64,000 nucleotides of DNA, taken from the IMG/VR virus record IMGVR_UViG_3300033977_000049, positions 23,975 to 87,974 of that record; one strand, 5' to 3'. Below the pieces are notes generated by a model that did not search any database, was not told where the DNA came from, and was given only the letters and a program-made list of their open reading frames with translations. The position numbers and the translations under genes were made by a program. The stretch comes from a virus. Of the stretch, positions 9,138-64,000 are shown one piece after another (positions within the stretch are counted from its first letter, which is position 1; every line of letters begins with the position of its first letter).

Positions 9138-10862
9138 TTACACCACAATTAAAGTTGCTGAAGAATAACCTTGAAGATCTGCAACTTGACCGGCATTTGT
9201 AGTCTGTCCTTGTACGTATAAGTGTGCAGCGCTACTAGGAGTAACAATTGTTCCTTTAATTAAAACCCAACTATATCCGGTTGCTTGACACATTACCGCC
9301 CCGACTGATCCAAAGCCAACAGTACCCACAGCCCCTATCAATTGTGCGCTTAGAGAAGTATTTACTCCCTGTGCTCCTTGCGCTCCCATAATTAATACAG
9401 AACCACTAGACATGGCTACAGTACCCTGTATAGTAAACTGCAAGCCCTGTGCTCCAGCGGAGACGTAAATGGGTAAATATATATCTACTTGATAAGCCGT
9501 GGATGTGGCTAATGTTGGAAAGGCAAATATATTAGATAAAGTAGTGCTTAAAGAAGCTGCCGCAGCATAGTAAGCATAAAGTGCTCCAGTTGGCCCTGTA
9601 TAGCCAGTATATCCTGTATATCCAGTGAAATTACCTGCTCCAGTATAGCCCGTGTAGCCTGTATATCCAGTAGGGCCTGTATAGCCGGTATAACCTGTAA
9701 AATTTCCTGGGCCAGTATAGCCAGTAGGGCCAGTATATCCAGTATATCCAGTAAAGTTTCCCGGTCCAGTATATCCCGTTGGACCTGTGTATCCTGTATA
9801 TCCAGTATATCCCGTGAAGTTGCCCGCTCCCGTATATCCAGTAGGGCCTGTATAGCCGGTATAACCTGTAAAATTTCCTGGGCCAGTATAGCCAGTAGGG
9901 CCAGTATATCCAGTATATCCAGTAAAGTTTCCCGGTCCAGTATATCCAGTTGGGCCGGTATATCCGGTATAGCCTGTATATCCTGTAAAATTTCCCGGTC
10001 CTGTGTAACCGGTGTATCCCGTTGGACCGGTTCCGGTATATCCAGTATATCCGGTATAGCCGGTTGCACCCGCTCCTGTATAGCCTGTATATCCAGTATA
10101 ACCAGTAAAATTACCAGGTCCGGTATATCCGGTATAGCCGGTTGCACCCGCTCCTGTATAGCCTGTATATCCAGTATAACCAGTAAAATTACCAGGTCCG
10201 GTATATCCAGTTGGCCCTGTATATCCAGTTGGTCCTATTACTCCAGCAGTACCTTGAGGTCCTGTATAGCCGGTATAACCGGTATATCCAGTTGGGCCAG
10301 TGTATCCAGTAAAAGCTCCAGATCCGGTATAACCGGTATATCCAGTTGGACCGGTATATCCCGTAAATGCCCCAGGGCCGGTATAGCCTGTATAACCCGT
10401 AGGGCCGGTATATCCAGTATAACCTGTAAATGCACCGGGGCCAGTATAGCCTGTATAGCCAGTGGGACCTGTATACCCCGTATATCCAGTAAATGCACCC
10501 GCGCCGGTATATCCAGTGGGTCCAGTATATCCCGTATAACCAGTATAACCAGTTGGTCCAGTCGCTCCAGCCACGCCAATAGGTCCAGTATAACCTGTAT
10601 AGCCGGATGGTCCGGTATATCCAGTATATCCAGTTGGGCCAGTATAACCAGTAAAATTACCCGGACCTGTATATCCGGTATAACCAGTAGGACCCGAAAA
10701 TCCACCATAGGGAAGAGAATTCCAAGCTGTTACACCATCCCCAATTTTTATTTGATGGGTATCGATTTCTAGTCCCATTTCTCCTGAATAGAGAACTGGG
10801 TTATTCGATGTCCAGTTGGAGGCGGTATCTCTTCGGAATTGAAAGATCAAATCGAAAGACAT
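9138..10862 (-). CDS. Collagen-like tail fibre with tropism-determinant-type N-terminus (574 aa)
   Basis: Residues 1-55 ([22 protein letters not shown], then [15 protein letters not shown]) match the N-terminal domain of the phage major tropism determinant, a trimerising, baseplate-attaching domain. Residues about 55-430 are uninterrupted Gly-X-Y triplets, mostly [10 protein letters not shown] and [10 protein letters not shown]. The last 145 residues form a hydrophobic beta-rich head without cysteine. This is a trimeric collagen-like fibre with a C-terminal head that probably binds the host. The many Thr residues in the third triplet position could carry O-glycans. It overlaps the next upstream gene by TAATG. 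Confidence 0.88.
9582..10700 (-). repeat. Collagen-type GYTGPTG coding repeat
   Basis: About 1.1 kb of short in-frame 9-, 18- and 45-base units encoding Gly-Tyr-Thr-Gly-Pro-Thr variants. Third codon positions vary freely between units (cca, ccg, cct, ccc for proline), so the repeat is old or selected at protein level. Near-identical blocks of more than 100 bases recur around 9660-9760 and 9840-9940 and around 10070-10200, which marks recent unit duplication. Confidence 0.9.
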
Positions 10863-30590: not shown

Positions 30591-31491
30591 TTAAGGAGCG
30601 ACAGCTTCAATCCTACGCAGAGTCATAACGGAGCCGGGTCGCAATGTGTTAGTATATTTCACATTATATGAAACCCAACCACCAATTTGACGGGCAGGAT
30701 CGGAAACGGAACCACTAGCTGGTGCCTCTTGGATCATGAGGCGGTAATTTTTCTCACCAGTTGTGGGGTTTTTACCCAAGAACACACTGAATATAGCGTC
30801 ATCACCAAATACATATGTGATATATTTGGGAACGCCATCCACGGTCGGCGTGGGGCAAGTCGTGGTTTGCTTGAAGCGGCATCCGGCAAATTCGATCACT
30901 TCATCATCAGTGAGAGGAGAGAACAATTTGCGGACGGTACTTTCATTGCGCTTCAAAATGTCAGTCAATCCATTGTTAGTTGTGTCGTTAAGAATATCCT
31001 CAACAACATAAGGATGAATAATGCCTCCCCAATAACCATCTTTGGTTAGGGGGCGAGCATTAACGCCCTTAAGAGACTGAGTAGCAGCACGGATAGTCGA
31101 TGCGGTAACGAGTGCACCACCAGTAAGGTCGATGTTTACATTACCATCAACCGCCGCAGCAGCATCAGCCGTCAACTGAACAAGGGTATTAAGAGACAGT
31201 GCCAACCGGTAATTCAGTTCGGTAGCCAAATTTTGGAGCAGAGACGGATCATCAATTGCCACGTCCATCGCTAGATCGGAACTGTTAATAAAATCACAAT
31301 ATTGTCCGATTGTGGCGACTATCTTTGACGTAGACTCTGAGATCGGAGATCCAACTGAACCTTCACTAGCAGGTTGAGTGTTAGCACCAAATAGCGAATA
31401 AGTGAAGAATTGGATCTGGTTCCCGGCATGGAGCGGAAGGGGCTTCTGCTTAGTCATAAGCAAGAAGGGCGTTTCCGCTTTCAGGTTTGGG
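30591..31491 (-). CDS. Major capsid protein, N4-gp56 family, exon 2 (residues 27-326)
   Basis: The sequence NLKAETPFLLMTKQKPLPL, IQFFTYSLFGANTQP, STIRAATQSLKG, WGGIIHPYVVEDIL and the closing QIGGWVSYNVKYTNTLRPG fit the N4-gp56 major capsid family (HK97 fold). The usual start of this family is missing here and is found upstream at 32510-32589. Joining exon 1 to base 31491 gives an uninterrupted frame of 326 residues (Ala-Ile-Pro-Asn-Leu-Lys across the join), a normal length. Without the join, an apparent TTG start at 31463 would give a truncated 290-residue product. Forms the icosahedral shell. Confidence 0.88.
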
Positions 31492-32509
31492 CAAATGTGT
31501 TTAGGCTTTAATTATCACTAATAAAGCGCTCTACATGTTACCATGTAGTTCGGACTCTATCTTAACTTCCAAAGAAGTTTCCGGCGTATTAGTCTCTGGG
31601 GATAATGGCTGATAAAGTTTTTGGAATTGTTGATATAAATCTTCTCTAGCTTCCTGATTTACTTTACTATCTAAACGTATAAATTGTAAAATCAAGTTTG
31701 CTTCTTGTTTTTTTAATATTAAATATGGCAATATTGCCAGTAGAAGATTTTCTTGAATTTCATTCCCGAATATAGTCCATCGGAAAGCAGGTATATAATT
31801 TTCATTTGCAGAATGTTTTGGTTTAAATATTCCACCAAAATGTAAAACTAAATATTCCATTAATGCCCTACTGCAATTAGTAATATTTATAACCTTGTGA
31901 TAGCAATAGCCATTGGCATTATATTGTTTAGTTTTAATTATTCTTAAAGAACCCTCGCCATCGATTAATGCTGCAAGGTAGGAAAAATCTGATTTTGTAT
32001 TATGCATTAATCCAATAGATTTCGATGACCCGCTATTTAATATCTTACTTTTAAAATAAAAATTTTCACGTATATCGGGAATGATTTTATTTCCTAAATC
32101 AATAAAAGAAAGACATAATTTTGCCTGTTCTTTTTTAATGATAAGGGAATCTAAAACAGATAGTAACAGAGACTTTATCCTCTCTTTACCACCATGCGGT
32201 TCCCAATTAAAAGATCTTGTTCCGGGTTTAAAGGAACCGCCAAAATGCTTTATTAGGTAATTCATTAACCTTTTATCTTTATTAGATACGCTAAGATTAA
32301 TAGAATATCCCCAATAGCCTTTTTGATTTTTACAGCGATAGACACCAATATTGCCTTCTCCGTCAATTAATCCCGCAAGATAAGCATAATGTCTATCTTT
32401 TCTAGCCATTCTTTCCTCCGTCTAGTCCTCCCACAATCATTATAACATATTTTTTAAAAAATATGTGGATTTTGACGGATATAGCCGAATTTAAAGGCGA
32501 CCAAATTTT
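31492..32509 (-). mobile_element. Group I intron in the major capsid gene (1018 nt)
   Basis: Core helices are legible on the minus strand. P1: exon AGGCGAU (32516-32510) pairs with GUCGCCU (32501-32495), leaving the expected U-G pair at the splice site. P3: UCCGUC (32479-32474) with GACGGA (32422-32417). P4: CCACA (32468-32464) with UGUGG (32435-32431). P5: an AT hairpin at 32465-32446. P7: GGACU (32428-32424) with AGUCC (31556-31552), within AAGATAGAGTCC, like the usual S strand. P9: CUACAUG-GUAA-CAUGUAG (31548-31531). The intron ends in G (31492). The endonuclease gene fills the P8 region and ends inside P9. The join restores the capsid frame. Confidence 0.92.
31531..32409 (-). CDS. LAGLIDADG homing endonuclease inside the intron (292 aa)
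   Basis: Two motifs, LAGLIDGEG at residues 11-19 and LAALIDGEG at 145-153, each supply one catalytic acidic residue, so this is a single-chain two-domain enzyme. LIKHFGGSFKPG and LVLHFGGIFKPK are the paired DNA-contact segments. The enzyme should cut intronless capsid alleles and drive copying of the intron. Its ribosome site GGAGG overlaps the 3' strand of P3, so translation and folding should compete. The last codons encode P7 and P9 sequence. Confidence 0.92.
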   Translation of the reverse strand: MARKDRHYAYLAGLIDGEGNIGVYRCKNQKGYWGYSINLSVSNKDKRLMNYLIKHFGGSFKPGTRSFNWEPHGGKERIKSLLLSVLDSLIIKKEQAKLCLSFIDLGNKIIPDIRENFYFKSKILNSGSSKSIGLMHNTKSDFSYLAALIDGEGSLRIIKTKQYNANGYCYHKVINITNCSRALMEYLVLHFGGIFKPKHSANENYIPAFRWTIFGNEIQENLLLAILPYLILKKQEANLILQFIRLDSKVNQEAREDLYQQFQKLYQPLSPETNTPETSLEVKIESELHGNM

Positions 32510-59219: not shown

Positions 59220-59516
59220 TGTGTGAAAATTCTCAACTTTCGGTATAAATGTCAGTGGGAGTTTTTTCGCACTCGGTTATTTCACTCATTCCTAGCAATT
59301 GGAATTCCATAAAATGTTTAATATTGGACGGGATGTTGAAATTTACAATACCTAATCCAGATGATTGATTCCAAACAATTTAGGGCGATAAGAGAACTTT
59401 TGTCCGCATAAAATTTCAACACATTTTTCCGCTTAACGGACAAGGCCAAGCCTCTAAAATCCAAGTAAAAACTATATTTGGTTTATTTTCAATAAGTTAA
59501 ATATTTTGGCACCGAG
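59220..59516. other. Divergent intergenic region
   Basis: Lies between the leftward and rightward blocks, so it should hold at least two promoters. No box pair is convincing enough to name. A 25-codon minus-strand frame (59310-59233) lacks a ribosome site. A TCCGCTTAACGGA palindrome sits near 59430. Confidence 0.45.
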
Positions 59517-59940
59517 AGTGCTCTATATATGGACGTCCGGGGAAACCCGGATGATCGAAATGGTTCTACCGCTCAGCACATAGTCCTAGATCGGGAATAC
59601 CTGATGCAACTAGGGGCGCATGGCTCAGAAATGCGGTATGAAAAAGCCGCAAGGCGAGACAAGTTCCCATAAGTCCTGTACGGAGGCAGGGAGCGCACCT
59701 GGAGAGCGCGGTGAGAACGTAGCCCTTAGCTAATAAGTGGTCCGGGCGAGGATAGCTCACGACTCTAGGATTCTCTCTTTTTAGATTATCAATCGCTTTG
59801 ATGCCTTAGCTTAGAAAAAACCGGCAGCATTATAAGTCAGGCTGCAACGGTGCGGGCAAGCGGAAACCGCGCTAAGGCATCTAAGCGGTTGATAATTTCA
59901 ATTGCAGGCATAAGTCCTGACCTATCGGCAGGCAGCGTTT
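59517..59940 (+). ncRNA. Large structured RNA, two domains
   Basis: Nearly every segment pairs on the plus strand. Domain 1: TCCGGG-GAAA-CCCGGA (59536-59551); TACCGC/GCGGTA (59567-59572/59633-59638) enclosing CCTAG/CTAGG and ATCGGG-AATA-CCTGAT (59590-59605); GCC-GCAA-GGC (59646-59655); CCTG/CAGG (59675-59690). Domain 2: a 14-bp stem with one G-U (59785-59798/59883-59896), then an 11-bp perfect stem (59800-59810/59871-59881), enclosing ACCGGCAGC/GCTGC..CGGT and GCGG-AAA-CCGC. GNRA loops read correctly only on this strand. ATAAGTC recurs at 59669, 59832 and 59910. No reading frame fits. Size and style recall GOLLD/ROOL-type phage RNAs, but I cannot assign a family. Confidence 0.75.
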
Positions 59941-59983
59941 AAAAGAGCAAACATGGCAACGTATCAAGCGTTATCGGAGGTAA

Positions 59984-60325
59984 ATGATATCCATGATTAA
60001 AATATTCTATCATGGAACTTCAAGTAAAAATCTTAAATCCATTCTCAAGATAGGCCTGCTTCCCGGTAACGGAAGAAATTACCAAGAAGATATTTGGCTA
60101 AAGAACCATTGCCAAAAGGGGGTTTTCATGGATGCCCAGGCTAGTGTAGCTCAACACTATGCCGAAATAGCAGCGGGTAAATATATTCCCAACAGTCAAT
60201 TAGGGCAACCTGTTATATTGGCGGTGAGAATAAATCCAAAAAGATTACATCGCGATATAGCCGCAGGTGGAGCGGCTTATTTTTGTACTTCTAGAATACC
60301 CCCTAAACATATAAAGAAAATCTAA
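59984..60325 (+). CDS. ADP-ribosyltransferase-fold protein, KptA-like (113 aa)
   Basis: IFYHGTSSKNLKSILKIGLL is the NAD-binding strand-helix of the ART fold (His-Gly-Thr), and GVFMDAQASVAQHYAEIAAG is the second conserved segment of the RNA 2'-phosphotransferase/ART group. The protein is half the length of KptA and lacks its N-terminal winged-helix part. It may modify a host protein or an RNA. Two ATGs (59984 and 59993) follow GGAGG; the first is 3 bases and the second 12 from it. It stands directly after the large RNA. Confidence 0.7.
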   Translation: MISMIKIFYHGTSSKNLKSILKIGLLPGNGRNYQEDIWLKNHCQKGVFMDAQASVAQHYAEIAAGKYIPNSQLGQPVILAVRINPKRLHRDIAAGGAAYFCTSRIPPKHIKKI

Positions 60326-60338
60326 TTTTGGAGGCTTT

Positions 60339-60494
60339 ATGTCATTCCTAGATTACGTTAGGGAATACGGAACAATAGCAGTCGCGCAAGCTCTAAAAGC
60401 GGTTGATGAAGAGGTTGCGGATTCCCGCATCAAAACCGGTGACCAGGAATATGACCCTCTGACTTTTCAAGATTCGATTCTTTATTGGAATTAG
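60339..60494 (+). CDS. Small acidic hypothetical protein (51 aa)
   Basis: MSFLDYVREYGTIAVAQALK, then acidic. GGAGGCTTT precedes the ATG. Its stop codon lies within the first arm of RNA element E1. Confidence 0.55.
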   Translation: MSFLDYVREYGTIAVAQALKAVDEEVADSRIKTGDQEYDPLTFQDSILYWN

Positions 60495-60631
60495 CTTTGC
60501 CCTTGCCCCTAATTGAGCGCTAAATGCTGCTAGCCAGGAAAGAAGGTCCAATTTAACGGACGCGAGTGGCGGGTCAATTCACTTATAGAATTGCGGGTGT
60601 TTAGCCTATTAGGGGCAACATGGAAAGCTAA
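60491..60631 (+). ncRNA. Structured element E1
   Basis: TTAGCTTT (60491-60498) pairs perfectly with AAAGCTAA (60624-60631). Inside, TTGCCCCTAAT (60503-60513) pairs with ATTAGGGGCAA (60608-60618), leaving GCCC on the left and CATGG on the right as an internal loop. About 90 bases between contain GTCC/GGAC and CAATTC/GAATTG hairpins. Outer stem and right loop are shared with E2-E4. Confidence 0.65.
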
Positions 60632-60659
60632 ATCAAATCGGAAGCGGAAGGAAATTAAA

Positions 60660-60709
60660 TTAGCTTTACTCCCGGCCTTGAGTAATCTCAGGGCCGTATG
60701 GAAAGTTAA
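60660..60709 (+). ncRNA. Structured leader element E2
   Basis: TTAGCTTT/AAAGTTAA outer stem, left loop ACTCCC, inner stem GGCCTTGAG/CTCAGGGCC (60674-60682/60687-60695), loop TAAT, right loop GTATGG. It stands 20 bases before the GGAGG of the 32-residue peptide gene. Confidence 0.72.
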
Positions 60710-60738
60710 TCTAAAGAGAAAGCTAAATGGAGGCTGTA

Positions 60739-60837
60739 ATGTCTTGGAAACTACGTGTACGTTTTTGGATTATGTACTTTCGTCTGATCCCAATAGCCCT
60801 AAGAATGGGCAGGCGACCACATATTGTATGGTATTAA
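60739..60837 (+). CDS. Basic aromatic micropeptide (32 aa)
   Basis: MSWKLRVRFWIMYFRLIPIA plus LRMGRRPHIVWY. The ideally placed GGAGGCTGTA supports translation. Another, longer frame over this region runs through E1 and E2 and is not credible. The peptide may be toxic, membrane-active or a translation-coupling leader. Confidence 0.5.
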   Translation: MSWKLRVRFWIMYFRLIPIALRMGRRPHIVWY

Positions 60838-60860
60838 AAAGACATGATTCAAGAATCAGG

Positions 60861-60984
60861 CCGGGCCTTTCCCGGCAAACAGGATAGAAGCTCAGGCTGA
60901 AAAGCTGGCGAGAGCTTGACCTGCTCAATAGTGTCCCACTTATCTGCAAAGCGGAAAGGCGAGAGGATTGAGAAAAGGATTAAC
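60861..60984 (+). ncRNA. Structured leader L1 before the DUF932 gene
   Basis: Begins with CCGGG-CCTTT-CCCGG. GGATAG (60882-60887) pairs through two G-U pairs with TTATCT (60940-60945), enclosing AAGCTC/GAGCTT. The 3' part, GCGGAAAGGCGAGAGGATTG, precedes an AAAGGATTAAC start region. About 85 percent identical to L2 at 63100-63223, with changes that keep pairing. Confidence 0.7.
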
Positions 60985-62088
60985 ATGCATAATCTAGAAA
61001 TCGTGGACGATAAAGCGTCTATGGTTTATGTCAGTAAATGGGGTAATCCTTGGCATGAATTAGGAACGCCCGTCGAAAATGCTATGACTGCCGTACAAGC
61101 CTTGGAATTAAGCCGCCAAAATTTCAAAGTCGAAAAGTTCCAACTTGAATTTCAGGGAAAGCCGGTTCCGGCATGGGGCATTTTCCGCACCGATTCAATG
61201 GGGCTTTTAGGAACCTGCGGAGAAGGTTATCTTCCAATTCAAAATGATGCACAATTCGACGCCATTGATGCTCTCTTGCAAGGTTCTGACGGTGCCCATT
61301 ATGATACCGCCGGGGTATTAGGTAAAGGTGAAAGAGTATGGGCCTTGGCCCGAATCCCCCAAGCCGATATCAATATCGGTTCCGATAAACACGAGGCCTA
61401 TCTTTTGGCATCCACTTCACACGATGGTTCCGAAGCATTTACTTTAAAGCTGGTCAATATTCGGGTGGTTTGCCAGAATACGCTAAGTATGGCGCTTTCC
61501 AGTAACGGCGCACTCGCCAGAATTCGACATACCAAAAACGCCCTAGGCCGCATGGAAGCAGCCAAAGAATATTTCAAGATGATCGAAAAGAACGCCCATA
61601 CCCTAGCCGAAAAACTACAGGTACTTGCTGGGCGTAACATGACCAAGCAAAGCTATATGCAGGTCATGGACCGCTTATTCCCTGTCAGGCGCGACCAACA
61701 GGGTAATATTGTGAACGCTACGCGCCGGGAAAACATCTTGAACGAAATTGTACGGTTGTACGAAAGCAATGACCGCAATGCGGTTCCTGAAGTCAAGGGC
61801 ACTGCATACAATCTCCTGAACGCTGTTACGGAATACACTGACCACTGCCGTAACGCTCGCATGACTGAAGATCGGGAAGAAGCCGGATATACCGTAAAAC
61901 AAGCCCGCGCTGAAAGCGCCCTGTTTGGATCGGGGGAACAATTGAAAACACGCGCCCTAGAAGTGATTCTTGAGGATACCAAGGGCAATCCGGTTCATAC
62001 TATCCAGCAGTGCGCCGCCCCTGCGGTTGAAATGCTACAAAGCACGGGTAGCGCCTTGCTCGATCAGGTAATTGATGAGAATAACTAA
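60985..62088 (+). CDS. DUF932 phage/plasmid-like protein (367 aa)
   Basis: MHNLEIVDDKASMVYVSKWG, WHELGTPV, LLGTCGEGYLPIQN, LLASTSHDGSEAFTLKLVNI, RVVCQNTLSMAL and HTKNALGRMEAAKEYF are hallmarks of DUF932, a widespread phage and plasmid protein whose role is still unsettled. Length is typical. The ATG at 60985 follows the conserved L1 leader; the longer upstream frame overlaps that leader and is rejected. Codon use is richer in G and C than in the leftward genes. Confidence 0.88.
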   Translation: MHNLEIVDDKASMVYVSKWGNPWHELGTPVENAMTAVQALELSRQNFKVEKFQLEFQGKPVPAWGIFRTDSMGLLGTCGEGYLPIQNDAQFDAIDALLQGSDGAHYDTAGVLGKGERVWALARIPQADINIGSDKHEAYLLASTSHDGSEAFTLKLVNIRVVCQNTLSMALSSNGALARIRHTKNALGRMEAAKEYFKMIEKNAHTLAEKLQVLAGRNMTKQSYMQVMDRLFPVRRDQQGNIVNATRRENILNEIVRLYESNDRNAVPEVKGTAYNLLNAVTEYTDHCRNARMTEDREEAGYTVKQARAESALFGSGEQLKTRALEVILEDTKGNPVHTIQQCAAPAVEMLQSTGSALLDQVIDENN

Positions 62089-62103
62089 GATTGGCTAGCC
62101 AAT

Positions 62104-62192
62104 ACTGGCTAGCATAACCCCCACACCATTGCGTAAGCCCCTTTTAATAAGGGCACGGGGTATACAAAAAGCTGGGGGTTATGCTGGCTAGT
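62104..62192 (+). terminator. Long hairpin with 20-bp G-U-containing stem
   Basis: Bases 62104-62123 pair with 62173-62192 over 20 positions, two of them G-U. Those wobbles would be A-C on the other strand, so the plus-strand RNA is what is selected. The inner loop holds a CCTT/AAGG hairpin. It follows the DUF932 gene and precedes a peptide gene by 18 bases, so it may end the first message or control the second. There is no U-run. Confidence 0.65.
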
Positions 62193-62209
62193 AATGGACT
62201 GGAGGGAAC

Positions 62210-62287
62210 ATGAAACTATCTTGCCGCATTATGCACGCAATATGGCTTTTCCTGTTGCGGCATCATGTAGTAAAGTTTGTTGTTTAG
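62210..62287 (+). CDS. Micropeptide (25 aa)
   Basis: MKLSCRIMHAIWLFLLRHHV plus VKFVV, hydrophobic and basic. GGAGGG at ideal distance. The stop TAG lies in the first arm of E3, just as the stop of the 51-residue gene lies in E1. Confidence 0.45.
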   Translation: MKLSCRIMHAIWLFLLRHHVVKFVV

Positions 62288-62334
62288 TCTTGCTCCCGGC
62301 CCTGAACAATTTCAGGGTCGCATGGAAAGCCAAA
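62283..62334 (+). ncRNA. Structured leader element E3
   Basis: Inner stem GGCCCTGAA/TTCAGGGTC (62298-62306/62311-62319) with CAAT loop; left loop GCTCCC, right loop GCATGG; outer arms TTTAGTCTT and AAAGCCAAA pair at seven of nine positions. Compared with E2, three inner-stem pairs differ and all remain paired. It leads into TTGGAGGAAAAC and the next gene. Confidence 0.7.
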
Positions 62335-62349
62335 TTTTTGGAGGAAAAC

Positions 62350-63099
62350 ATGTGCAACTTTGCTTCAGGAATACTCACAAAAGACAAAGAATTTTGGTGC
62401 GATACATCTGATTCGCACGAGGATATTATACAAAAACACGGCCTGCACGAAGATGGGGCGCAAGGCCCCAATCTGCTGAAATACGAACTTCTCCCTCCGG
62501 TAAATGGCGAAAACCTTTTCAGCCTTGCTGAATGGGAATTCAAGATCGACCAGGATATTAAGCCGGAATGGGTGAAGGGGAATGAAGAAGAAAGAGCGCG
62601 AGCGGCGTTCTTACGAAGATTCCCTGATTTTGGCAAGCGCAAGCTGAGCGCGGATGGGAGCCTTAATTTGAGTAGCCTGACTACACTGCCCGCCGATGCC
62701 AAGCTGAGCGTGGGTGGGGACCTTTATTTGCGCAACCTGACCTCACTGCCTGCTAATGCCAAGCTGAGCGCGGGTGGGAACCTTGATTTGCGCAACCTGA
62801 CTAAGCTCCCTGCTAATGCCAAGCTGAGCGTGGGTGGGAGCCTTGATTTGAGCGGCCTGACTACGCTCCCTGCTAATGCCAAGCTGAGCGTGGGTGGATA
62901 CCTTGATTTGCGCAACCTGACTAAGCTCCCTGCTAATGCCAAGCTGAGCGCGGGCGGGGGCCTTAATTTGAGTAGCCTGACTACGCTGCCTGCTGATGCC
63001 AAGCTGAGCGCGGGTGGGAACCTTTATCTTATCAATGCCTTACAAGGTAAGGAATTGCCCGCAGGTATTACCATTAAAGGCAGGGTTATATATTATTAG
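62350..63099 (+). CDS. Tandem-repeat protein with leucine-rich-like units (249 aa)
   Basis: The N-terminal 95 residues (MCNFASGILTKDKEFWCDTS...) are unique and acidic. From about residue 97 seven 20-residue units follow, such as LPANAKLSVGGSLDLSGLTT, predicted to form a flat beta-solenoid. The unit resembles bacterial and phage LRR-like repeats that bind proteins. The true start is 62350 after GGAGGAAAAC, not the open frame from 62194. A near-identical second gene begins at 63882. Confidence 0.75.
   Translation: MCNFASGILTKDKEFWCDTSDSHEDIIQKHGLHEDGAQGPNLLKYELLPPVNGENLFSLAEWEFKIDQDIKPEWVKGNEEERARAAFLRRFPDFGKRKLSADGSLNLSSLTTLPADAKLSVGGDLYLRNLTSLPANAKLSAGGNLDLRNLTKLPANAKLSVGGSLDLSGLTTLPANAKLSVGGYLDLRNLTKLPANAKLSAGGGLNLSSLTTLPADAKLSAGGNLYLINALQGKELPAGITIKGRVIYY
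62641..63060 (+). repeat. Seven tandem 60-bp repeats in coding frame
   Basis: Each unit is exactly 60 bases and starts with AAGCTGAGCG. Differences are mostly single-base (AGT AGC or CGC AAC, GAT or AAT). The high identity signals recent unit gain by recombination. GC content is well above the surroundings. Confidence 0.9.
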
Positions 63100-63223
63100 C
63101 CGGGCCTTTCCCGGCAAATAGGATAGAAGCCCAGGCTGCAAAGCTGGCAAAGGTTCGACCTGCTCAATAGTGCCCCACCTATCCATAAAGCGGAAGGGCG
63201 AGAGGATTGAGAAAAGGATTAAC
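63100..63223 (+). ncRNA. Structured leader L2
   Basis: Same plan as L1: CCGGG-CCTTT-CCCGG starting just after the upstream stop, GGATAG (63121-63126) paired by Watson-Crick pairs with CTATCC (63179-63184), a GGTTCGACC segment in the middle, and the same GCGGAAGGGCGAGAGGATTG 3' part. Precedes the 64-residue gene by AAAGGATTAAC. Confidence 0.7.
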
Positions 63224-63418
63224 ATGCAAAAACCTCAAATCGAATTGCGAAGCAAACTTTATCTTTTACCGGGCATTATTGGCCTGCAAGATGCGTTTAT
63301 GGCCAATCCCCGCATGTCGCCTAATGAATATCTTATGGCCGAAATAGCCTGGAGGGAGTTTATAAACGAAAAGCGCGGGGAATTTCTTTTGCGATTAACC
63401 CGGCCTTATCCGAATTAG
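63224..63418 (+). CDS. Small hypothetical protein (64 aa)
   Basis: MQKPQIELRSKLYLLPGIIG, LMAEIAWREFINEKRGEFL. Mostly helical. Start fixed by the leader shared with the DUF932 gene; the frame upstream (63170) lies in that leader. Unknown. Confidence 0.6.
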   Translation: MQKPQIELRSKLYLLPGIIGLQDAFMANPRMSPNEYLMAEIAWREFINEKRGEFLLRLTRPYPN

Positions 63419-63422
63419 GTTC

Positions 63423-63438
63423 AAAGTACTAGTACTTT
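63423..63438. promoter_or_regulatory. 16-bp perfect palindrome
   Basis: AAAGTACTAGTACTTT ends seven bases before the -35 box of the promoter at 63446. Symmetry without loop suggests an operator for a dimeric repressor or activator. Confidence 0.55.
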
Positions 63439-63445
63439 AGTGCTG

Positions 63446-63474
63446 TTGACATTTTCTTGCAAACAAGATATAAG
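63446..63474 (+). promoter_or_regulatory. Sigma-70-type promoter before the structured RNAs and tRNA
   Basis: TTGACA (63446-63451) and TATAAG (63469-63474) with exactly 17 bases between them. It is the best promoter in the window. It should drive the hairpin pair, the tRNA and perhaps the repeat-protein gene at 63882. Confidence 0.75.
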
Positions 63475-63494
63475 GATACTTGATCTTGTGCAAG

Positions 63495-63596
63495 CTAGGC
63501 GAATAGATAAGGGCTGCCTTTATGCAGCTACGGTTATTTACCTAGAATCAGGTGGGTGTGTAAAGGGCTGCCTATTTGCGGCCACGACCACCCACC
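63495..63596 (+). ncRNA. Two tandem related hairpins
   Basis: Hairpin 1 (63495-63545): CTAGG/CCTAG outer, GGCTGC/GCAGCT inner. Hairpin 2 (63551-63596): GGTGGGTG/CACCCACC outer, GGCTGC/GCGGCC inner. Both share AAGGGCTGCC before and GC(A/G)GC(T/C)ACG after the loop while the outer arms are unrelated but fully paired. Two inner pairs covary. Confidence 0.65.
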
Positions 63597-63612
63597 AAAA
63601 AGTTTTAGTTAT

Positions 63613-63695
63613 CGCGGGAGAGTGGACACGGATATATAAACCACGCCAGCCCCATAAGCTGGAAATAGCCAGTTCGACTCTGGTTCCCGCAACCA
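63613..63695 (+). tRNA. tRNA with CAU anticodon, initiator-like
   Basis: Acceptor CGCGGGA pairs with TCCCGCA except C1/A72, the mismatch typical of formyl-methionine initiator tRNA; A73 and encoded CCA follow. T arm GCCAG-TTCGACT-CTGGT is complete. Anticodon stem CCAGC/GCTGG encloses CCCATAA, giving CAU but with C in place of the usual U33. D stem GTGG/CCAC has an unusually long 15-base loop. Three G-C pairs in the anticodon stem expected for an initiator are absent. Active function is thus uncertain; an elongator Met or Ile(CAU) role is possible. Confidence 0.68.
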
Positions 63696-63700
63696 ATTTT

Positions 63701-63781
63701 AATCCGCTGGCCTTATGGCGGCTCTAAGGACTAACAGCGACTTCACCCTACCTCTGCCTTAGTGGTTTATGACAGCGGATT
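63701..63781 (+). ncRNA. Structured segment after the tRNA
   Basis: AATCCGCTG (63701-63709) pairs with CAGCGGATT (63773-63781) and CTAAGG (63724-63729) with CCTTAG (63757-63762). The first arm begins five bases after the tRNA CCA end. It could be a small RNA or a processing and terminator structure. Confidence 0.55.
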
Positions 63782-63808
63782 TTCCCAAAGCGTGTTATAG
63801 TTTCGAGG

Positions 63809-63864
63809 TTAGCATTGCTCGTGCCCATCAGGATATCCCACTGATGGGCGTTATGGAATGCTAA
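63809..63864 (+). ncRNA. Structured leader element E4
   Basis: TTAGCATT (63809-63816) pairs with AATGCTAA (63857-63864); inner stem GCCCATCAG/CTGATGGGC (63823-63831/63841-63849); left loop GCTCGT, right loop GTTATGG. Compared with E1/E2 the outer stem has a T-A to A-T change with compensation. Stands before TTTGGAGGAATC and the gene at 63882. Confidence 0.72.
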
Positions 63865-63881
63865 TCTAATTTGGAGGAATC

Positions 63882-64000
63882 ATGTGCAATTTTGCTTCAG
63901 GAATACTCACAAAAGACAAAGAATTTTGGTGCGATACATCTGATTCGCACGAGGATATTATACAAGAACATGGCTTGCACGAAGATGGCGTGCAAGGTCC
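63882..64000 (+). CDS. Second copy of the repeat-protein gene (partial, runs off the right edge)
   Basis: The first 39 codons match the gene at 62350 almost base for base (MCNFASGILTKDKEFWCDTS...), with QKHGLHEDGAQG replaced by QEHGLHEDGVQG. The leader E4 and ribosome site also correspond to E3 and its site. A recent tandem duplicate whose repeat section lies outside the window. Confidence 0.85.
   Translation, partial: MCNFASGILTKDKEFWCDTSDSHEDIIQEHGLHEDGVQG

What the first reader, a model, noticed from the sequence alone, without database searches (positions are those of the whole stretch)
59517..59940. Large ornate non-coding RNA at the turn between leftward and rightward genes
About 420 bases with almost complete pairing, GNRA tetraloops in the plus sense, a 25-pair central helix with one mismatch, and three ATAAGTC motifs each followed by a hairpin. 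No coding. Large ornate RNAs of phages (GOLLD, ROOL) are known to be near tRNAs and to have unknown or cage-like roles; a CAU tRNA lies 3.7 kb to the right. Could be a new class.
Basis: partly seen in the sequence, partly recalled or inferred. Interest (0 to 1): 0.85.

Follow-up and report, generated by a model that had tools for sequence, protein, structure and literature searches.

The report
Phage mRNA leader with conserved hairpin
The 430-base folded RNA at the turn between two phage gene sets is most likely the control region at the front of the rightward genes' messenger RNA, and it ends in a small hairpin that turns out to sit just before start codons in many unrelated phages and a few bacteria but is in no RNA database.

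Summary
The observation largely holds. Bases 59519-59949 are non-coding and unusually well folded (z -4.2 to -4.7, plus strand), closed by a 6-pair helix, with a 27-pair central helix and three ATAAGTC motifs within 248 nt. No Rfam family matches. The GOLLD/ROOL-like reading is not supported. The RNA opens the rightward operon without a terminator, and its closing helix ends 3 nt before a start codon.

Following ATAAGTC led to a small RNA element (R1): stem, (A/G)UAAGU, CCUG-A, hairpin, CAGG-C, stem. I found about 50 copies in roughly 30 phage contigs and 11 bacterial genomes. Its stems covary (0.359 against 0.115 +/- 0.014 shuffled). In the main set 38 of 43 copies lie 11-30 nt before a ribosome-binding site and start codon; sequence-only controls do so in 11 of 147, at least 7 of those being real copies. 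The window has one good copy (59900-59943, E 7e-9 with a model built without it) and one weaker (59659-59697).

The other ~380 nt have no detectable homologue, so their fold rests on one sequence. R1's function is inferred, not shown. The rightward operon looks accessory.

The parts
59519..59949 (+). Whole structured leader RNA, closed by helix 59519-59524/59944-59949 (UGCUCU/AGAGCA)
   Evidence: Fold z -4.2 to -4.7 on plus strand; closing helix mean pair probability 0.95
59534..59553 (+). Hairpin CGUCCGGG-GAAA-CCCGGAUG, GNRA tetraloop
   Evidence: Pair probability 0.99
59567..59638 (+). 5' irregular stem-loop (TACCGC/GCGGTA outer helix, ATCGGG/CCTGAT inner helix); holds ATAGTCCTAG...CTAGG, only superficially like R1
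   Evidence: Helix probabilities 0.58-0.99; not detected by the R1 models
59646..59655 (+). Possible small GCAA tetraloop hairpin GCC-GCAA-GGC (the minimum-energy fold pairs it elsewhere with probability only 0.36-0.44)
   Evidence: Sequence
59659..59697 (+). Second, imperfect R1 element: GUUCCC-A-UAAGU-CCU...AGG-C-A-GGGAGC; lacks the bulged A and inner hairpin
   Evidence: 19.0 bits, E 0.0023 over 64 kb with a model built without window sequence; 17.6 bits with R1
59698..59769 (+). Stem-loop domain (CCTGGAG/CTCTAGG, GTGAG/CTCAC)
   Evidence: Helix probabilities 0.94 and 0.81
59783..59898 (+). Central 16+11 pair helix with one U-U mismatch, topped by a branched apex
   Evidence: single-sequence covariance model finds no homologue in 50 records
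59820..59851 (+). Apical hairpin ACCGGCAGC/GCUGC..CGGU with ATAAGTC in a 12-nt loop; the loop could pair with the 59916-59925 part of R1 (ATAAGTCAGG/CCTGACCTAT, 9 of 10)
   Evidence: the pseudoknot or switch is inference
59900..59943 (+). R1 element: weak outer stem, A-UAAGU, CCUG-A-CC(UAUC)GG-CAGG-C, 20 nt before ATG 59953
   Evidence: 35.7 bits, E 7e-9 over 64 kb with model R3, which holds no window sequence
59953..60000 (+). 15-codon ORF (MATYQALSEVNDIHD) whose TAA overlaps an ATG of the next gene (ATGATTAA); its weak SD (AAAGAG) lies in the closing helix
   Evidence: Sequence; no homology evidence, so a candidate leader peptide only
59984..60325 (+). First sizeable gene of the rightward operon, 113 aa; SD GGAGG at 59976-59980; weak PARP-like match and unknown-function PHROG
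   Evidence: Pfam PARP E 0.034, below its cut-off; phrog_13493 E 2.6e-8

Best explanation
The 430-nt RNA is the structured 5' leader of the phage's rightward, accessory operon and acts in cis on the messenger that carries it. Its last module is R1, a small conserved hairpin that many phages, and a few bacteria, place about 20 nt upstream of start codons. Most likely mechanism (inferred): R1 is a recognition site for a ribosome component or RNA-binding protein that sets translation, or protects the messenger's 5' region. The larger fold holds R1 next to the first start codon and masks that start's weak ribosome-binding site in the closing helix, until R1 binding or leader-peptide translation opens it. 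Shown here: the leader position, the fold statistics, and the R1 family with its covariation and its place before start codons. Not shown: transcription, a binding partner, or any switching.
For: The RNA lies at the divergent turn, reads in the sense of the rightward genes, and has no terminator between it and ATG 59953/59984. R1: 43 aligned instances, 89.4% of cells paired, covariation score 0.359 against 0.115 +/- 0.014 shuffled, one instance changing two P2 pairs at once (L023:4536, CCGA/UCGG); an alignment of 28 without window sequence gives 0.318 against 0.117. 38 of 43 R1 hits precede SD + start codon by 11-30 nt; sequence-only matches do so in 11 of 147, of which at least 7 are themselves R1 by the model. 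Several phages carry 2-4 copies. Window copy found with a model built without it, with ATG at +20. R1 is also the last piece of leaders elsewhere: tandem copies in L019, and a twister-sister ribozyme directly upstream in L020. The closing helix covers the weak SD of the 15-codon ORF.
Against: No homologue of the other ~380 nt, so its conservation and role are unproven. The window's R1 has a poor outer stem and is followed by a 15-codon ORF with a weak SD rather than a strong SD and gene (it failed the automatic test). No sigma-70 promoter stands out upstream. The genes behind R1 are of many kinds, which does not single out one regulator. R1 was found with patterns taken from the window, so its sequence conservation is partly selected; the independent evidence is stem covariation, position before start codons, and divergent extra copies.
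Confidence: 0.55

Rival explanations
1. Free-standing ornate non-coding RNA: the 430-nt fold is released or made alone and acts in trans or as an RNA-only assembly, as ROOL and GOLLD do.
For: Closed, multi-domain fold with high pair probabilities, two GNRA loops, phage origin, a tRNA-like sequence 3.7 kb away.
Against: No Rfam match; no terminator at its 3' end; ends in an R1 element that elsewhere is a start-codon-proximal mRNA element; no homologues, whereas GOLLD and ROOL occur in many phages and prophages (PMC12286853).
Confidence: 0.2
2. Transcription-level leader: the fold controls RNA polymerase (attenuation, or cis-acting antitermination of the put type) at the start of the operon.
For: Position at the start of an operon; competing pairings exist (59714-59718 with 59772-59776 before TCTTTTT; 59832-59841 with 59916-59925).
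Against: No good intrinsic terminator in the leader; R1 keeps a fixed 11-30 nt distance to start codons, which suits translation rather than transcription.
Confidence: 0.12
3. Catalytic RNA: an undescribed self-cleaving or splicing ribozyme that processes the messenger and leaves R1 near the new 5' end.
For: In L020 a twister-sister ribozyme (59.9 bits) lies directly before R1; branched fold with GNRA loops.
Against: No Rfam ribozyme or intron match in the window RNA even at E<10; no split gene or endonuclease at the site; R1 copies elsewhere mostly follow ordinary genes closely, with no ribozyme.
Confidence: 0.07
4. DNA-level element: the inverted repeat and hairpins mark a replication origin or recombination site at the transcription turn, and the RNA is incidental.
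For: The cumulative GC skew minimum falls at about 60 kb; 31-nt imperfect inverted repeat.
Against: Skew follows gene direction; plus strand folds better than its complement; R1 is strand-specific relative to genes.
Confidence: 0.06

Closest known systems
GOLLD and ROOL RNAs (large ornate phage RNAs)
   Same: Phage-borne, unusually elaborate fold, non-coding
   Different: No Rfam match; ~430 nt (many GOLLD exceed 800 nt, PMC12286853); no confirmed tRNA island; acts most likely in cis as a leader; no homologues
Translational operators and start-codon-proximal hairpins of phage mRNAs (e.g. MS2 coat operator; from general knowledge)
   Same: Short hairpin with a conserved internal loop and a bulged A, placed just before the ribosome-binding site
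   Different: R1 sequence and structure are not those of any operator I know; it spans phages of unrelated hosts and some bacterial genomes; binder unknown; not in Rfam
Twister-sister ribozyme (RF02681)
   Same: Occurs immediately upstream of R1 in one phage contig (L020)
   Different: Window RNA does not match it; R1 is a separate element outside the ribozyme
Leader-peptide and SD-masking 5' leaders (erm-type attenuation; from general knowledge)
   Same: Structured leader, tiny ORF coupled to the next gene, weak SD inside a helix
   Different: No evidence here that the tiny ORF is translated or that any inducer exists

Membership tests
GOLLD / ROOL | Covariance-model match in Rfam | tested here: not met
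   No Rfam hit at gathering threshold over 64 kb nor at E<=10 over 59300-60050
GOLLD / ROOL | Association with tRNA islands | tested here: not met
   ARAGORN finds no tRNA in the window; one sub-threshold tRNA-like sequence (17.4 bits)
GOLLD / ROOL | RNA-only multimeric cage | not testable with these tools
   Needs cryo-EM or native gel
R1 start-codon-proximal RNA element (defined here) | RUAAGU-CCUGA...CAGGC core | tested here: met
   59909-59933, 35.7 bits E 7e-9 with a model without window sequence
R1 start-codon-proximal RNA element (defined here) | Inner hairpin (P3) and outer stem (P1) | tested here: inconclusive
   P3 CC/GG present (P 0.84); P1 only C-G and G-C then a G-G mismatch
R1 start-codon-proximal RNA element (defined here) | 11-30 nt before SD + start codon of a gene | tested here: inconclusive
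   ATG at +20 with a weak SD and a 15-codon ORF coupled to the 113-aa gene; automatic test not passed
Twister-sister ribozyme (RF02681) | Covariance-model match | tested here: not met
   No hit at E<=10; positive control in L020 detected
Group I intron | Catalytic core match and interrupted gene | tested here: not met
   No Rfam hit at E<=10; no gene interrupted at 59.5-59.95 kb

The most novel reading that the evidence does not exclude
R1 is the binding site of one widespread factor (a ribosome feature, a conserved host protein or a ligand) that unrelated phages and some bacteria, including Patescibacteria, share as a common switch in front of start codons, and the 430-nt window RNA is an elaborate leader that uses two R1 copies and hides the first start site.
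Probability: 0.2. Interest if true: 0.8.

Novelty: new variant of a known kind. Interest (0 to 1): 0.55.

Why it matters
R1 looks like an undescribed family of RNA elements with a strict core, covarying stems and a fixed place before start codons, spread across phages of many environments and a few bacterial genomes. Such a fixed core usually means a fixed partner, so R1 gives a short RNA with which to look for a translation or mRNA-stability factor used by many phages. The window RNA is an unusually large leader that carries it.

Tried and rejected
Rfam at both thresholds: only chance matches. Nucleotide searches of phages and plasmids, 48 related phage records, 396 genomes of the phylum of a Bryobacterales MAG, and all fetched loci with word-7 blastn and nhmmer: no homologue of the bulk of the RNA. 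Single-sequence covariance model of the central domain on 50 records and 13 loci: no convincing homologue (one 23.9-bit, AT-rich hit in L217). Pattern for two R1 cores at the window's spacing: 94 stretches, none of the loci listed had an R1-model hit. Neighbour-gene route: 113-aa protein and terminase alone found nothing; portal alignment gave 80 relatives, of which 48 tested lack R1 and 39 tested lack the DUF932 gene; 80 DUF932 loci from viral contigs lack R1. R1 as a general element of Patescibacteria: rejected, 2 of 287 genomes. R1 in a named E. coli phage (CP025887): rejected, model score 6 bits at another site. Literature searches for the core sequence gave only unrelated papers. The weak ATAGTCCTAG repeat at about 59580 was considered as another R1 copy and rejected.

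Full report
WHAT IS THERE. The window is the last 64 kb of an 88-kb virus contig; its nearest annotated relative by terminase and portal is Tunturiibacter phage Tunturi_3 at about 30% identity, so an acidobacterial host is likely. Leftward genes end at about 59.22 kb; rightward genes start at 59.95-59.98 kb. Between them an AT-rich stretch (59225-59510, GC 0.33, z -1.5) gives way to a GC-richer folded stretch (59517-59952, GC 0.51, z -4.7). The plus strand folds better than the minus strand. The predicted fold is closed by 59519-59524/59944-59949 (P 0.95) and contains a GAAA hairpin, an irregular 5' stem-loop, an R1-like element, a stem-loop domain, a 27-pair central helix with a branched apex, and a second R1 element. 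These are single-sequence predictions.

IS IT MORE THAN CHANCE. None of 100 dinucleotide shuffles folds as well. ATAAGTC occurs 10 times in 64 kb on both strands, against 7.8 expected, but three of the ten are on one strand within 248 nt here. Two of them share the longer text CATAAGTCCTG...GGCAGG.

FOLLOWING THE REPEATED MOTIF. A pattern from the two longer copies, run on 2.9 million viral contigs, gave 19 stretches; about half had a hairpin with extra shared features just before a ribosome-binding site and ATG. The A after CCTG and the C after CAGG were not in that pattern, yet the convincing hits share them. Wider patterns and one scan of bacterial genomes added more. Element R1 is: outer stem P1 (free sequence), A or G, UAAGU, CCUG, unpaired A, inner hairpin P3 (free sequence), CAGG, C, one base, P1'. 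In 43 aligned instances 89.4% of cells pair, nine of twelve pairs have changes on both sides, and the covariation score is 0.359 against 0.115 +/- 0.014 shuffled and at most 0.082 with slid partners. That alignment is fitted to the model; a MAFFT alignment of 28 sequences without the window gives 0.318 against 0.117. Variants found by the model but outside the patterns include UAAGACC and a P2 changed to CCGA/UCGG.

PLACE OF R1. 38 of 43 instances lie 11-30 nt before a start codon with an SD-like sequence and an open frame. Of 147 sequence-only matches that were not in the aligned set, 11 pass the same test, and at least 7 of those are R1 by the model. Some phages carry several copies: G005 and G014 four each. 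In bacterial genomes there is one copy per genome and only 2 of 287 genomes of one Patescibacteria phylum sample have one, so R1 is sporadic there. Genes behind R1 are varied: small unknown proteins, an exonuclease-like protein, a single-strand binding protein (the latter two named by eye from sequence). No Rfam family covers the R1 sites examined.

R1 IN THE WINDOW. With a model containing no window sequence the copy at 59900-59943 scores 35.7 bits (E 7e-9 over 64 kb) and 59659-59697 scores 19.0 bits (E 0.0023). The first copy lies 20 nt before ATG 59953, which opens a 15-codon frame whose stop overlaps an ATG of the next gene (ATGATTAA). The weak SD of that frame falls in the closing helix. 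The next gene also has its own GGAGG at 59976. The outer stem of this R1 is poor.

THE REST OF THE RNA. No homologue of the remaining ~380 nt was found in annotated phages and plasmids, 48 related phage records, 396 genomes of one phylum, 50 records with a model of the central domain, or any fetched locus. The related phages also lack R1 and the operon's DUF932 gene, although those records may be fragments. The rightward operon with its leaders is therefore probably accessory. Other gene gaps of this operon are also folded: 62089-62209 z -5.9, 63420-63880 z -5.9, 60495-60738 z -3.2, though 63100-63222 is not (z -0.6).

HOW IT PROBABLY WORKS. Shown: a well-folded plus-sense RNA at the head of an operon with no terminator before the genes, ending in a conserved element of start-codon regions. 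Inferred: R1 binds a ribosome component or protein and sets translation or messenger stability; the larger fold masks the first start site. The fold may switch through the alternative pairing 59832-59841/59916-59925. None of these inferred steps was tested.

COMPARED WITH WHAT IS KNOWN. GOLLD and ROOL are phage and prophage RNAs, often near tRNA islands, that form RNA cages; many GOLLD exceed 800 nt (PMC12286853). The window RNA fails the model and tRNA-island tests, so it is not filed with them. R1 works like a start-codon-proximal operator or leader hairpin, but I found no named family that it belongs to. The literature library holds only open-licence papers, so an earlier description elsewhere cannot be excluded.

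LIMITS. R1 was discovered with the window's own sequence, so core conservation is partly selected; hits scoring 20-28 bits among pattern-fetched loci include chance matches. The independent support for R1 is the covariation of the P1 and P3 stems, the P2 double change, the extra copies within contigs and the start-codon placement.

Noticed in passing
window 60480-61003, 62089-62349, 63099-63242, 63420-63880: Nearly every gene of the rightward operon is preceded by a folded or repeated leader: paralogous hairpins with P1 UUAGCUUU/AAAGCUAA and a 5x5 internal loop (xCUCC / xAUGG) at 60492-60640, 60660-60710, 62284-62329 and about 63800-63880; a 144-nt element duplicated at 60860-61003 and 63099-63242 (87%).
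   Followed up: partly
window 63616-63697: tRNA-like sequence with CAU at the anticodon position, long D-loop and an AACCA end; below threshold for Rfam (17.4 bits) and not called by ARAGORN.
   Followed up: partly
window 62346-62468 and 63878-64000: Start of one gene duplicated (93%); the second copy runs off the contig end.
   Followed up: no
window 62580-63059: 60-nt tandem repeats encoding 20-aa repeats (LSAGGxLxLxxLTxLPANAK) in the 301-aa ORF.
   Followed up: no
window 30591-32409: Major capsid ORF (290 aa) matches its PHROG only from position 55 on and is preceded in reading direction by an ORF that looks like a LAGLIDADG endonuclease; a split capsid gene with an intron that Rfam does not recognise is possible.
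   Followed up: no
L020 91-212 (minus strand): Twister-sister ribozyme (59.9 bits) directly upstream of an R1 element and a small gene in a 29-kb phage contig.
   Followed up: partly
L019 71-171: Two R1 elements in tandem in one leader, four R1 copies in a 5.2-kb contig.
   Followed up: partly
window 9138-10862: Long collagen-like TGYTGYTGP repeat protein, probably a tail fibre.
   Followed up: no
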